Assembly (NCBI GenBank): GCA_954871525.1
Contig: OX940865.1
Location: forward strand, 13,902,606-13,966,605
DNA: 64,000 nt
DNA from: Parietaria judaica
Taxonomy: Eukaryota > Streptophyta > Magnoliopsida > Rosales > Urticaceae
Direction of reading: 5' to 3'
Below are positions 26,006 through 58,053 of this stretch, one piece after another. A program made the translations under genes and the position numbers. Within the stretch, counting starts at the first letter, position 1. Each line of letters opens with the position of its first letter. A model generated the notes under the pieces. The model was not told the DNA's origin. It worked only from the letters and a program-made list of their open reading frames with translations, and searched no databases.

Positions 26006-27357
26006 TCTCCCTCTCTCCTCTCTCTGGTTCGGTTTGATCCGTTAATCTGTTTTGGCGCTGAGAGGGGAGAGACAAACGACGTGTCGTTTTGGGTTGTATG
26101 GACTGCGTTTTGTGTTATCTAGATTGGGGGAGAGAGAGAGAGAGAGAAAATATCTTCGGGTTTTGTACGGACTATTTTGTTGTCGTTTCAGCAATGATAT
26201 AAGTTTGGAAAATTCGCGGCGGAAGTAAGTATGTTTTACCATTTCAGTAAGTTTAGTGTTTATTTTATTTTGTTGACGGCGTAAGTACATATGTTGTCAT
26301 TCTTTTTGCAATGGCAACTTGTGTATTGTCTTTCTTGTGTAATGTAAGCACTTTTAGAGTAAAAAAATTAGCATTAACGACACATTCTTACCTTTGCCTA
26401 TGTTTGCAGTTTACACAAGGAAAAAATTGTACTAAATGATAAAATGTGTACTTTTGCAATCGAATATCGACGTACAAGGAAAAAGATGCGCTGCATAATT
26501 ATTAGAGATCGATTTAATGTGACTCTCATATGATCGGGGCAAGGCTTCTAAAGGGCCACACTTAAGAGCAAGCCATCAAATTAAGTGACAGAAGCCTTGG
26601 CCCGATCCCTTTTCAAGATTACATTCTTATTTCTTAATGCGACTTATTTGGTTCTTTTTACTTGTTATGTCGTACCTCGTCACGAGATCCACTTGAAGGT
26701 ACGTTGTTGGTGCTCTTTGCTTCTTGAACGGATCAGTTTAGGAGATGTAATGGGTTTTTGTTAATCATAAAAGGAAATTTGTACTTGTGAAAATGATCTC
26801 TGAAAATAATAAATTACCGACGAGACTATGAACGGGTATCTTCAACCGCAATTTTCTTGTTTCATTTTAGATTTCGTAGAATTATGTTTCTTTCGGTTTG
26901 AATATGTTCTTAATTTTTGCATGCTTTAAATCAATGTTTGTACTTCTCTGCAAGGTGAAATTGAGACCATTCGGAGTTTTTTTTTTTTTTTTTTTTTCTT
27001 TCGGAGTTTTCACTAAAGAAGAAATCGGTCTGAATCTGTATATAATTTTTTATACATGTATTTTTTAAATCTGCCACACGTGGAAATCAAAGAAAAAGTC
27101 AAAAGGACCCGACAAAACGACATCAGTTTTTCTAGTGTCTGTTAATTTGTAGTTAAATAAATACTAATTGACAAATAAAATGAATAGTTGAATAAATGGT
27201 TGATTTATTATTGATAATGATATAATACTCTATAGTCTATAGTCTATAACTCTATGCCTTGTACTCTAGGAGAAGCATATTTTTATTTTAAACATTTTAA
27301 GAAAATGACTTTGTAATTATTTTAAGAGAATATTAGCGCAAAAGTCATGAGCATAAT
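26006..27357. other. Upstream region of the PPR gene; intergenic
   Basis: A GA-rich tract (26129-26145) lies in the putative PPR promoter and a 23-T run near 26977. No gene is supported up to the LTR element. Confidence 0.6.
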
Positions 27358-28117
27358 TGTTATGGGTATTTTTCGAAGCCTAGAAAAATTAAGGCCCAGC
27401 CCAAAAAACCTTCCCAAAAGGCTTAAAAGACTAATAAAAGTCTACATAGACGACCTGGGCCCACCGCAAAAAAGTCAGCGGGACTCGCCGCAAAAAGTCA
27501 AAGGGACTCGACTCAAAAAGTCAACCCAAAAAGTCAACGGGACTCGGCCCGAATAAAGACAGTAAAAGTTTTGTTACTTTTACCACAAAAGGGCTTTAAA
27601 TTAATTAAAAGCACCGCGCACCGCGCACCGCGCACCGAGCACCGCGCACCGCGCACCGAGCACCGCGCACTGCGCACCGCGCAAGCAATATCATAATTGC
27701 TCAGGGGCCCATCAAAGTAATTATTAATTACTAAGAGGTCCCTGCATCCTTCTATAAATAGAAGCTCATTTCAATCAAAACGGTAACTTCAACAACTCAG
27801 ATCAACCCACAAAAAACGCTGTAAAGCGATAAAACCTCCGTTTTCCATTCTCTTAAATATCCCGACTTAAATACCCGACTAATGTTGAGCGTCGGAGGTG
27901 GATACGGAGGCACCCCCTCCGTACCCCCTTAAAGTTCACGTTTATTTCATTATTTCAGCAAGATATACGGAGACGGAGTTCTGGAAGATATTTCCGGCTT
28001 ATCAAGAAATACCAATCAAGCTTCAAGACCCCCTTTGACTGTCAAGAGGTCATTGGGCCCGGCCCAAAATCAAGACTTGGGCCGCTTTAAGTGTTGATCC
28101 ATTTTTCGGCATTAACA
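27358..28117 (+). repeat. 5' LTR
   Basis: TG...CA ends. It contains TATAAATAG near 27755, a likely TATA box for the element's transcript, and an array of a CACCGCG-type heptamer at about 27611-27684. Confidence 0.92.
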
Positions 28118-29640: not shown

Positions 29641-29824
29641 GTCAAAATTAGAACCGCGAAGACGAAGCAAACAAGTGAAAATGAAATCAAAATCTGAACT
29701 GAATGAAGACTTTCCAGATACAAAGCCGTGAAAGGTCGAATCTCAATCCCGCCAACTCAGGCAGCAAAGCCGAGAATGGCCGGATCTAAATCCCACCTAC
29801 TCAGGAAACAAAAACAAACCGAGA

Positions 29825-30790
29825 AATAAGACGCTAAGGCGCAAAACTCGGTAAGACGCTACGTCGCGAAGGACCAGGAAATAAGAAGCTAAGGCGCAAA
29901 ACCTGGCAAAATACCGAGAAGCAAGACGCTAAAGCGCGACCGGAAAAATGAGAAAGTAAGACGCTAAGGCGCAAAATCTGGCGAATACAAACCGAAAAAT
30001 AAGACGCTAAGGCGCGAAACTCGGTAAGACGCTACGGCGCGAAGGACCAGGAAATAAGAAGCTAAGGCGCAAAACCTGGCAAAATACCGAGAAGCAAGAC
30101 GCTAAAGCGCGACCGGAAAAATGATAAAGATAAGACGTTACGGCGCGAAGGACCAGGAAGTAAGACGCTAAGGCGCAAAATCTGGCGAATACAAACCAAA
30201 AAATAAGACGCTAAGGCGCGAAACTCGGTAAGACAGTACGGCGCGAAAGACCAGAAGGTAAGACGCTAAGGCGCAAAATCTGGCGAATACAAACCGAGAA
30301 ATAAGACGCTAAGGCGCAAAACTCGGTAAGACGCTACGGCGCGAAGGACCAGAAAATAAGAAGCTAAGGCGCAAAACCTGGCAAAATACCGAGAAGCAAG
30401 ACGCTAAAGCGCGACCGGAAAAATGAGAAAGTAAGACGCTAAGGCGCAAAATCTGGCGAATACAAACCGAAAAATAAGACGCTAAGGCGCGAAACTCGGT
30501 AAAACGATACAGCGCGAAAGACCAGAAGGTAAGACGCTAAGGCGCAAAATCTGGCGAATACAAACCGAGAAATAAGACGCTAAGGCGCAAAACTCGGTAA
30601 GACGCTACGGCGCGAAGGACCAGGAAATAAGAAGCTAAGGCGCAAAACCTGGCAAAATACCGAGAAGCAAGACGCTAAAGCGCGACCGGAAAAATGATAA
30701 AGATAAGACGTTACGGCGCGAAGGACCAGGAAGTAAGACGCTAAAGGCGCGGCCGAAAAAATGATAAAGATAAGACGCAAAGGCGCAAAG
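29825..30790 (+). repeat. Composite tandem array in the retrotransposon interior
   Basis: Modules of about 35 bp built around AAGACGCTAAGGCGC and AAGACGCTACGGCGC are combined into larger units. The word ATAAGACGCTAAGGCGC (or a close variant) recurs at 29825, 29999, 30203, 30301, 30474 and 30572, spaced about 174, 204, 98, 173 and 98 bp. There is no coding potential. Confidence 0.85.
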
Positions 30791-31129
30791 GCCGGGAGGT
30801 TGATACATTTAGTCGCAAACTCCGACAAAAGACCAAAACAACTTGTCTTCAAAAGTTCAAAATCATAAGACGCCCAGGCGCAAACACTGGCAGAAGCTCA
30901 AAACACAAAAGACACCCCAGCATGTCCAAGTTCTAAAAAAAAGCTCTCATGCTCACCCTTTTCCAGAAAAAACTGTAAGGTTATCTCTGGAACGCCCCTA
31001 TCAGCGTACATGGAATGTTGCCCCTTGGGACGCCCCCATATATCTTTAAAAGGGCAGATTGAAAAATCCCGCAACTTAAGGGAAATAGTTTTTCGCAAGG
31101 CGAAGCCATACAAAAAACTGGGGGGTTAA

Positions 31130-31910
31130 TGTTATGGGTATTTTTCGAAGCCTAGAAAAATTAAGGCCCAGCCCAAAAAACCTTCCCAAAAGGCTTAAAA
31201 GACTAATAAAAGTCTACATAGACGACCTGGGCCCACCGCAAAAAAGTCAGCGGGACTCGCCGCAAAAACTCAAAGGGACTCGACTCAAAAAGTCAACCCA
31301 AAAAGTCAACGGGACTCGGCCCGAATAAAGACAGTAAAAGTTTTGTTACTTTTACCACAAAAGGGCTTTAAATTAATTAAAAGCACCGCGCACCGAGCAC
31401 CGCGCACCGCGCACCGAGCACCGCGCACCGCGCACCGCGCACCGCGCACCGAGCACCGCGCACTGCGCACCGCGCAAGCAATATCATAATTGCTCAGGGG
31501 CCCATCAAAGTAATTATTAATTACTAAGAGGTCCCTGCATCCTTCTATAAATAGAAGCTCATTTCAATCAAAACGGTAACTTCAACAACTCAGATCAACC
31601 CACAAAAAACGCTGTAAAGCGATAAAACCTCCGTTTTCCATTCTCTTAAATATCCCGACTTAAATACCCGACTAATGTTGAGCGTCGGAGGTGGATACGG
31701 AGGCACCCCCTCCGTACCCCCTTAAAGTTCACGTTTATTTCATTATTTCAGCAAGATATACGGAGACGGAGTTCTGGAAGATATTTCCGGCTTATCAAGA
31801 AATACCAATCAAGCTTCAAGACCCCCTTTGACTGTCAAGAGGTCATTGGGCCCGGCCCAAAATCAAGACTTGGGCCGCTTTACGTGTTGATCCATTTTTC
31901 GGCATTAACA
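31130..31910 (+). repeat. 3' LTR
   Basis: Nearly identical to the 5' LTR, but its heptamer array (from about 31383) is three units longer. It has the same TATAAATAG near 31546. Confidence 0.92.
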
Positions 31911-54338: not shown

Positions 54339-54343
54339 CTAAG

Positions 54344-55051
54344 TGCCACATGGTTACAGGGGCCAACCCGCAAAACACATGTGCGACACTCGGTAAGTTT
54401 GTTAATTGAGTTTGTCTTCCACATGTTTTTTGTCATCGCTGGTTTCACCATACCTTGGATTTCATCAGTGAAGTGGCTCCAGCTCCCGACCAGCACTATG
54501 CGCCAAACTGCAAGGTTGGCAAGTCCCCACAGCCTGCCGCCGTAGTCGCCTAGCCCTTCGTTACCGAAGCTCTACCCGACTACCCTACAACTTCAGCATT
54601 TACCCGGAATGACCCAACGATGATTTCCCGACAAGACTTGTCACACCCCAGTCCTACTCTGACTATAAGGTGTGACGAACTCTCCCCCAACAACTTGAGT
54701 CGACGCCCTCTTCGACTTAGAGCTTTAATCATGCTCGCCCTCGAGCACGCCTTTGATAACTCGAAAAGCACATGTGCGCTTGGCAAAACTCGAAAAGCGC
54801 ACATCCTCCCTTCGCCCCTTTTTCGAAGGTCTCCTGCCTACTCCTCCCGAGCGCTTGGCAAAACTACCGAGCATTACTCTTTTTGAGTTTGGGAGATTTT
54901 CTCAGACCACCAAAGGTATCCTCGCGGACAGCACCCCACCTTTCGAAACGAGTAGCGCCAATCTGGCTCTGATACCAATTGTCACAGGGTTAACGGACTT
55001 ACCGAGTGCCGCTCGGGTGTTTTGCGGGTGGGCCCTTTTAACCCTGTGACA
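54344..55051 (-). mobile_element. Short-LTR (TRIM/SMART-like) element with inverted terminal repeats
   Basis: The right terminal repeat, 54980-55051 (72 bp), starts TGTCACAGGG and ends CCCTGTGACA. Adjoining it, the minus strand reads TGGTATCAGAGCC (about 54965-54977), the classic initiator-Met tRNA primer-binding site. The left end, from 54344, shares CCAACCCGCAAAACAC and GACACTCGGTAAGT with the complement of the right repeat, so the two terminal copies are inverted. CTAAG flanks both sides (54339-54343 and 55052-55056), the 5-bp duplication of integrase-mediated insertion. There is no coding capacity. Confidence 0.7.
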
Positions 55052-55056
55052 CTAAG

Positions 55057-56205: not shown

Positions 56206-58044
56206 GGGATAATAGCGGCATAATATAAAGGGATAATAGCGGCAAAAGTGGTCAAAGTTAGGCTAAGTGTGCAAATAAGTGGCCAAACTGATTTAATATC
56301 GGCATAAGTAGCCAAAGTTTACCAAACCGTGGACAGTACAAATTCCATCCATTTCATGTCAACGCCGTTAGCCACGTCATGTCCACAAGTGTTGAGCTTT
56401 GGCCACTTATTTGCACACTCGGCTTAACTTTAGCCACTTTTGCCGCTATTATCCCTTATTTTTTACGTTCCAAAGTATTTTTAGGGTTTATCTAGATATT
56501 TTTTATTATTTTTTTCTTTTTCTTAAGATTTGACTAAAACTTTTTCTAAAAGAACTGATTTCGTTTTTAAAATTTAGAACGCTGAATATCACTCTCAATT
56601 TTGAAAATATTAAAATGTGTTATCGGTTTCACATGTAATTTACGATCATAGGATTTGACATAAAACGTCTATATACTTAATTGTTAGGGACCATTAGATT
56701 TTTTTAAGGAATAAGTACGAAATACCCATTTAGCCACAAGTTTTTTTTAATTACTCATTGTGTGTATTAAAATGAACTAAAATATATATGTTTTAATACG
56801 TTTGTACAAAATAAAATTTTTGTTAATAATGTTGGCCTAACATTGTTAGTTAGAGTCGAGGCTAAAATCGAGACTTTATAATATTATTTTATTGAGATAT
56901 ATTTAATTGTTAGAGACCGAAATTTTGTTTAAGGAAATACCCATTTAGCCACAATATATTTTAATTTTTTTTTACTCATTATGTGTATTAAAATGTACCA
57001 AAATAGGTAGTGTTTTAAAAACTTTGTAAAAAAATGATAATCTCGTTACTAATTTTGGCCTAACATTGTTAGTTAGAGCCGGGACTAAATCGAGACTTAG
57101 TAATATTATTTTATTGAGATTATTAATTTAAATGAAATTTTACTGGACGAAGTAGTCTTTCGGTCTATAATGCCAAGGCTTCGTGGTTAATAGTTTGGCA
57201 CACCAAGATACCATAGTTTTAAAAAAAATAAAAAAATTAACAGTAGCATCAATGATTTGATATGGGTTTTGAGATTAGTGAAAGTGACTAATACATTCTT
57301 GTTCTATTTCTTGTTCCGTAAGATTGTTTTCTTTTTATTTTTTCTATTTCGACCCCTAAATCATGATCAGGTAATTTGTACAGGGCCGAGAACATCAAAA
57401 ATTTGTTAGTACTGTCTATCTCGTACCCTGGTGAACCAAACAGAGCGTAAGTCTTCCAAGCATGGAGAGGCTAAACTAATCACTAGTAACCCCTACATTT
57501 TGCGCAAAGTTAACAAAAATGGTTTTTTTTCCGTAAGTTATGTCTGGTGATTTCAAATGACTAAGTCCATAAAAGCATGGTACAATAAAATTTCATAAAA
57601 TTAATAATATTAATAAAATAAAATAATGGTCCCTAACAATTAAATATATAGAGGTTTTATGTCAAATCCTATGATCGTAAATTACATGTGAAACCGATAA
57701 CACATTTTAATTTTTTCAAAATTGAGAGTGATATTCAGCGTTCTAAATTTAAAAAGAAAAAGAAAAAGAAAAAATATATCTAGATAAACTCTAAAAATAC
57801 TTTGGAACGCAAAAAAAAGGGATAATAGTGGCAAAAGTGGCTAAAGTTAGGCCGAGTGTGCAAATAAATGGCCAAAGCTCAACACTTGTGGAAATGAAGT
57901 GGCTAACAGCGTTGACATGAAATGGATGGAATTTTTACTGTCCACAATTTGATAAACTTTGGCTACTTATGCCGATATTAAATCGGTTTGGCCACTTATT
58001 TGCACACTTGGCCTAACTTTGACCACTTTTACTGCTATAATCCC
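56206..58044. mobile_element. Mutator-like non-autonomous element with long TIRs
   Basis: The arms are about 56230-56700 and 57625-58044 and are inverted copies throughout: ends GGGATAATAGCGGCAAAAGT and complement, then the shared blocks GATCATAGGATTTGACATAA and TTTTAGGGTTTATCTAGATA. The 9-mer TAATATAAA flanks both ends (56197-56205 or 56221-56229; 58045-58053). Each arm is itself partly palindromic. The interior has a roughly 220-bp tandem duplication (about 56680-56900 and 56907-57125) sharing TTGGCCTAACATTGTTAGTT. No transposase is encoded. Confidence 0.85.
56680..57125. repeat. About 220-bp direct duplication inside the long-TIR element
   Basis: Two units share AATACCCATTTAGCCACAA, TTACTCATT(G/A)TGTGTATTAA and GGCCTAACATTGTTAGTTAG, with scattered differences, so the duplication is not recent. 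Confidence 0.75.
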
Positions 58045-58053
58045 TAATATAAA

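What the first reader, a model, noticed from the sequence alone, without database searches (positions are those of the whole stretch)
54344..55051. Short-LTR element whose two terminal repeats are inverted, yet with a 5-bp target duplication
LTR elements carry direct terminal repeats. Here the 72-bp right repeat, next to a canonical TGGTATCAGAGC primer site, matches the left end only in inverted orientation, while CTAAG flanks both ends exactly as after one integrase-type insertion. This suggests either an aberrant reverse-transcription product (an inverted-repeat TRIM) or an uncommon element class mixing TIR and LTR traits. The LTR is itself nearly palindromic at its tips, which could favour such a product.
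Basis: seen in the sequence. Interest (0 to 1): 0.75.

Follow-up and report, generated by a model that had tools for sequence, protein, structure and literature searches.

The report
Plant TRIM with inverted ends
A short plant retrotransposon copy whose two ends are mirror images, best read as a faulty DNA copy (two joined pieces, or one folded back) that the element's integrase still inserted, and not the only one of its kind in its family.

Summary
In detail: 54344-54405 matches 55051-54990 only in inverted orientation (51/62), and CTAAG flanks 54344-55051. But the 72-bp "LTR" is not the LTR. Relatives in the same genome show a TRIM family (small non-coding LTR retrotransposon) with 332-bp direct LTRs, PBS, PPT and 5-bp TSDs. 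Here the left LTR is whole (54344-54677); the right one is cut to 14 bp and joined, over a 6-bp overlap (GGTTAA), to 64 bp of an LTR in reverse. Both outer tips are the U5 tip, which explains the "palindromic" 72 bp.

Of 40 loci scored in one search, 22 are direct-LTR insertions with perfect TSDs, one is a solo LTR, 4 (this one included) have two inverted U5 tips with perfect TSDs, and 13 were not resolved at both ends. One junction reads AACT|AGTT, as if two unprocessed U3 cDNA ends had been ligated. Most likely a cDNA unfinished on its U3 side was joined to another cDNA (or folded back) and integrase inserted the product by two U5 ends. An inverted TRIM pair with a TSD is already in print for maize: a new variant of a known kind.

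The parts
54339..54343 (.). left target-site duplication CTAAG
54344..54677 (-). complete (element-sense 3') LTR, 78.5% identical to the 332-bp LTR of relative L023; outer tip = U5 end
54678..54979 (-). internal region; no Pfam match in the 5 frame pieces given
54680..54694 (-). polypurine tract GTTGTTGGGGGAGAG next to the LTR
   Evidence: sequence; CTCTCCCCCAAC shared by the 8 units aligned
54966..54977 (-). primer binding site TGGTATCAGAGC (match to initiator tRNA-Met is recalled), 2 nt from the LTR tip
   Evidence: sequence; shared by the 8 units aligned
54980..54993 (-). remnant of the element-sense 5' LTR: only its last 14 bp (U5 tip)
54988..55051 (+). inverted copy of the U5 end of an LTR (LTR positions 64-1), overlapping the remnant by GGTTAA; outer tip again U5
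   Evidence: 58 of 64 identical to the LTR start of L023, opposite orientation; 78-92% with other LTR starts
55052..55056 (.). right target-site duplication CTAAG

Best explanation
A single integrase-mediated insertion of an aberrant linear cDNA of a TRIM family, with U5 LTR tips at both ends. The first cDNA was complete from its U5 end through the 3' LTR, PPT, internal region and PBS, but stopped 14 nt into the second LTR (the side that is made last and would end in U3). Its unfinished end was joined, over GGTTAA, to the first 64 nt of an LTR in inverted orientation, which supplied a second U5 tip. Integrase used the two U5 tips as it normally uses U3 plus U5, leaving a 5-bp duplication. Shown: anatomy, TSD, junction, the normal structure of relatives, and three other U5-U5 loci with TSDs. 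Inferred: that the join came before integration, and its route. I favour joining of two cDNAs (about 60:40) over a strand switch of the growing minus strand onto a U5 copy.
For: Relatives: 22 direct-LTR copies with perfect 5-bp TSDs. Four loci with two inverted U5 tips and perfect TSDs: this one (CTAAG); C7:39399962-39401819 (GTATG), two TRIMs in inverted orientation, its three full LTRs alike at 331 or 332 of 332, so recent; C1:1553202-1558029 (GTACC), a TRIM/F-family composite; C3:22338899-22340959 (ACTAC), a TRIM array joined to an inverted LTR of a related family. In some searches no locus with two recognised outer tips lacked a TSD. Junctions: C1 reads GTGTGACA-AACT|AGTT-TGTCACAC, i.e. 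two U3 ends each with 4 nt of PPT-side sequence; it is the only exact match in the genome to GGGTGTGACA N0-10 TGTCACACCC. C7 reads LTR 1-332, AACT, then inverted LTR 266-1. In all four the outer tips are U5 and the join lies on the side that should have ended in U3; none of the resolved loci has two U3 tips. M (the right U5 stretch) and the left LTR share 4 sites against relatives (12, 19, 31, 34), so they come from one lineage.
Against: No other row spans this junction, so it is not repeated among the scored matches; the exact pattern search for it did not complete. Since the LTRs end TGTCACA...TGTGACA, a later replication slip could return to the right LTR tip and keep the TSD. Against relatives the left U5 stretch has 9 private changes and the right one 1 (binomial p 0.02), more unequal than expected if both were inserted at the same moment from the same sequence. 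This copy is only 78.0-78.7% like the 8 units aligned, so mutations blur the join. A fifth locus with an inverted LTR join (C10:35793021) ends without a tip or TSD.
Confidence: 0.82

Rival explanations
1. Sub-route within the U5-U5 reading (not exclusive of it): one molecule only. The 3' end of the growing minus strand, 14 nt into U5, folded back, paired GGTTAA with TTAACC at LTR positions 59-64 of its own 5' end (or of a strong-stop strand) and copied to the end.
For: TTAACC stands at LTR positions 59-64 in the relatives, and the copy would end at the minus-strand 5' end, giving a U5 tip. One step suffices.
Against: Does not explain the AACT|AGTT blunt junction, nor the joins between different families.
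Confidence: 0.3
2. A normal direct-LTR copy was inserted; later a replication template switch replaced most of the right LTR by an inverted piece and returned at TGTGACA.
For: Overlaps exist for both switches (GGTTAA 6 bp, TGTGACA 7 bp); short local inversions of this type are known (recalled). The unequal change counts would be allowed if the right piece were younger.
Against: Needs two switches, the second exactly at the LTR tip; does not account for the composites at C7, C1 and C3, each with U5 tips and a TSD.
Confidence: 0.1
3. A DNA transposon (TIR element) with 5-bp TSD carrying LTR-like traits.
For: Inverted ends and a 5-bp TSD.
Against: 22 relatives have direct LTRs, and the aligned ones share PBS and PPT; the inverted arms differ from locus to locus.
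Confidence: 0.02
4. Two independent overlapping insertions whose flanks match by chance.
For: Nested and mixed copies occur in the family.
Against: Chance of a 5-bp match is about 1 in 1000; of the five inverted-join loci whose second end I could read (this one, C7, C1, C3, C10), four have tip and TSD and one has neither.
Confidence: 0.02

Closest known systems
TRIM with two inverted units, Zma-SMART, maize AC220956:117725-118283, TSD CTTCA (PMC4717578, Fig. 2 legend; section 8 and passages read)
   Same: Inverted TRIM composite with a TSD, in a family that also forms tandem arrays; the paper reports PCR and sequencing of TA-TRIMs of this subfamily (Fig. 2).
   Different: In the parts I read no end type (U3 or U5), junction or mechanism is given; there two TRIMs are inverted, here a 64-bp U5 piece, and two of the three other U5-U5 loci here include joins to other LTR families.
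SMART, small LTR retrotransposon of grasses (PMC3281118; outline and passages)
   Same: Very small LTR retrotransposon with PBS and PPT.
   Different: In the parts I read described with LTRs of the ordinary kind; its sequence was not aligned with this family here.
DIRS-type retrotransposons (recalled)
   Same: Inverted termini in a retroelement.
   Different: DIRS elements use a tyrosine recombinase and leave no TSD (recalled); here there is a 5-bp TSD and the family has direct LTRs.
Ty3/gypsy chromovirus-like partner (F element, L054/L055)
   Same: Its internal region sits beside the TRIM LTR in composites, and its LTR shares the tips TGTCACAGGG / GTGTGACA.
   Different: 926-bp LTR and a gag/chromodomain ORF; the TRIM has none.

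Membership tests
TRIM (as a family) | direct terminal repeats | tested here: met
   22 of 40 loci with direct LTRs and TSDs; 13 of 40 unresolved
TRIM (this copy) | direct terminal repeats | tested here: not met
   only the 14-bp U5 tip is direct; the outer right end is inverted
TRIM | PBS and PPT inside the LTRs | tested here: met
   54966-54977 and 54680-54694, minus strand; aligned with 8 units of relatives
TRIM | no coding capacity, mostly under 1 kb | tested here: met
   708 bp; 0 Pfam families for 5 frame pieces at E<=1
TRIM / LTR retrotransposon | 5-bp TSD and TG...CA tips | tested here: met
   CTAAG; outer tips TG and CA
MITE / TIR DNA transposon | copies share terminal inverted repeats | tested here: not met
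   22 of 26 two-ended insertions have direct repeats
DIRS | no target-site duplication (recalled) | tested here: not met
   CTAAG duplicated
Ty3/gypsy chromovirus lineage | related gag/pol in the mobilising element | tested here: inconclusive
   TRIM LTR adjoins an F internal region with Retrotrans_gag, Ty3_capsid, Tf2 SH3 and a Chromo hit below its cut-off; seen in mixed copies only, no test of mobilisation

The most novel reading that the evidence does not exclude
Joining of reverse transcripts at their unfinished U3 sides, followed by integration through two U5 ends, is a standing side route in this family: it rescues incomplete cDNAs, mixes families, and leaves inverted LTR pairs that could be transcribed into hairpin RNA and start silencing.
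Probability: 0.35. Interest if true: 0.7.

Novelty: new variant of a known kind. Interest (0 to 1): 0.5.

Why it matters
It suggests, from genomic copies, that a plant retrotransposon integrase can pair two U5 ends, and that cDNAs of different families can be joined before integration. Inverted LTR pairs are one suspected first trigger of transposon silencing: a 2024 Arabidopsis study of the EVD element looked for LTR hairpins by read pairs, found none in that configuration (and says the method is limited by insert size), and reports an antisense nested insertion (PMC11624286, passages). The loci described here are natural inverted LTR pairs on which the idea can be tested.

Tried and rejected
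TIR-transposon and two-insertion readings: set aside because of the relatives. A viral-contig scan for U5 tip plus PBS found nothing. Sampling of contig C1 by place (21 stretches, 210 kb with 5 kb of N) found no copy. A protein search with a 110-aa frame of the element found nothing at E<=1. Literature: nine searches; in the titles and abstract starts listed I saw no paper on U5-U5 LTR insertions. I opened four papers in part only and not the three that hold the phrases; most subscription journals are not held, so this is no proof of absence. PMC4079214 (Cassandra in pear) is not held. An attempt to find the far end of the C1:53744891 composite failed: L074 shows no LTR match, and the stretch between it and L035 was not seen. 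No age was computed for this copy because of the unequal changes. The U5-U5 share (4 of 26 two-ended insertions) is not an unbiased rate: this copy was the query (3 of 25 without it), 13 of 40 loci are unresolved, and I fetched longer stretches for only some of them. The search for U5 tips joined tip to tip did not complete.

Full report
What was checked. The region 54344-55051 has arms that match only when inverted: 51 of 62 positions without gaps, score 69, against at most 25 in 2000 single-letter shuffles and 16 for the best direct match. CTAAG flanks it on both sides. The element is GC-rich (0.52) between AT-rich flanks (0.28 and 0.26). The window looks like a plant's by its genes (my reading of the frames, not tested); it lies at C7:13902606-13966605 of a 538.7-Mb assembly.

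The real LTR. A search of the own genome with the 708 bp gave 149 matches; 91 candidates were seen and 40 scored, and by hand I grouped the rows into 40 loci. A second search with a relative gave 47 matches and, by my comparison, two further loci (C10:36493386, C5:31778258). Both searches give lower bounds. The 8 units of relatives aligned are 96.1-99.8% alike; this copy is 78.0-78.7% like each. The unit of relative L023 is LTR 332 bp plus internal 296 bp. Written on the window's plus strand, which is the element's minus strand, the LTR starts TGTCACAGGG (U5 tip) and ends GGGGTGTGACA (U3 tip); the internal region starts at the PPT and ends at the PBS. So the left LTR here is 54344-54677, and the right end holds LTR 1-14 (54980-54993) followed by inverted LTR 64-1 (54988-55051), overlapping in GGTTAA. 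The 14-bp perfect palindrome of the 72 bp is the U5 tip present at both ends of this piece.

Census of the 40 loci. Direct-LTR insertions with perfect 5-bp TSDs: 17 loci (L023, L024, L027, L037-L050; L027, L041 and L045 are three-LTR arrays) and 5 more read at their ends (C7:15042120, C20:12186926, C1:27314180, C7:19983264, C5:25642246), 22 of 40. One solo LTR with TSD CATAG (C20:30721421), 1 of 40. Two U5 tips with a TSD, 4 of 40: this one; C7:39399962-39401819 (GTATG); C1:1553202-1558029 (GTACC); C3:22338899-22340959 (ACTAC). Not resolved at both ends, 13 of 40: C4:42300850, C7:36800626, C10:35793021, C4:41882224, C21:27771421, C1:53744308, C20:19676252, C21:6862424, C1:58662440, C8:27052776, C7:33044910, C10:18461141, C4:32459567; four of these (C21:6862424, C8:27052776, C7:33044910, C4:32459567) were not fetched. 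None of the 26 two-ended insertions has two U3 tips.

The other three inverted loci. C7: LTR-INT-LTR, then AACT, then inverted LTR 266-1, INT, LTR; its three full LTRs agree at 331 or 332 of 332, so it is young. C1: TRIM LTR and internal region, then a 926-bp LTR of another family (F), F internal region, a TRIM LTR, AACTAGTT, and an inverted F LTR ending in the U5 tip and GTACC; the two F LTRs agree at 396 of 396 in one compared piece and 626 of 630 in the other (the pieces overlap). AACT is the start of the internal region in both families, so AACT|AGTT looks like two U3 cDNA ends, each still with 4 nt outside the LTR, joined blunt (inference). A genome scan for GGGTGTGACA N0-10 TGTCACACCC found this place alone, with 0 in the reversed-pattern control. 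C3: a TRIM array ending 84 nt into an internal region, joined to an inverted LTR that resembles the one next to L025 (90% over its first 84 columns, 71-73% in two later stretches), ending ...TTAACCCTGTGACA|ACTAC. A fifth locus, C10:35793021, joins F LTR 1-363 to inverted F LTR 920-109 and then runs into other DNA, with no tip and no TSD found.

Mechanism. In reverse transcription (established knowledge) the U5 end of the minus strand is made first and the U3 end last, so an incomplete cDNA has a good U5 end and a bad U3 side. Joining two such molecules by their bad sides gives a molecule with two U5 tips, which integrase can insert with a normal 5-bp duplication. This fits the four loci, including the joins between families. 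A fold-back of a single minus strand fits this copy as well and is not excluded. That retroviral integrases act on U3 and U5 tips and make 4-6 bp duplications is stated in PMC11054761 (passages); that two U5 tips can be used in a plant is inference from the loci.

Results that do not fit well. Against relatives, the left U5 stretch has 9 private changes, the right one 1, with 4 shared and 1 site different in all three (p 0.02). Two stretches inserted together should change alike. The 14-bp remnant of the first cDNA's own right LTR agrees with the right stretch, and the left one differs from it at 3 of 14, so a second source molecule does not by itself explain it; chance, unequal mutation or a younger right end may. 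The test was chosen after seeing the alignment.

Relation to known things. TRIMs with direct repeats and TSD are known, and arrays and one inverted pair with TSD are shown for maize (PMC4717578, section 8 and passages). What I did not find there, in the parts read, is the end type, the junctions, or joins to other families. The partner F carries gag, Ty3 capsid, Tf2-type SH3 and a weak chromodomain match, which points to Ty3/gypsy chromoviruses.

Verdict. The strange structure is real, is one of at least four in its family, and is best explained as a U5-U5 cDNA composite inserted by integrase; it is not a new element class.

Noticed in passing
window 56228-58048: A 1.8-kb element with long inverted arms (235 nt, 93%) starting AAGGGATAATAGCGGCAAAAGTGG, beside the TRIM; its ends were printed but not classified.
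   Followed up: partly
window 27339-27910 and 31111-31703: Two stretches of about 570-590 bp, 96-99% alike in the parts compared, 3.8 kb apart, with repeats spaced mostly 75 or 98 bp between them at 29680-30794.
   Followed up: no
G000:C1:53744891 downwards (L035): TRIM LTR and 279 nt of internal region joined head-on to a gypsy protease frame in opposite sense; a further candidate U5-U5 composite whose far end was not found.
   Followed up: partly
L025/L055, L026/L054, L033/L052, L036/L053, C5:31778258 (L075): Mixed elements that combine the TRIM LTR with LTRs or internal regions of related longer families; exchange between families seems frequent here.
   Followed up: partly
window 54344-54405 against 54990-55051: The left U5 stretch has 9 private changes and the right one 1 against relatives, unexplained.
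   Followed up: partly
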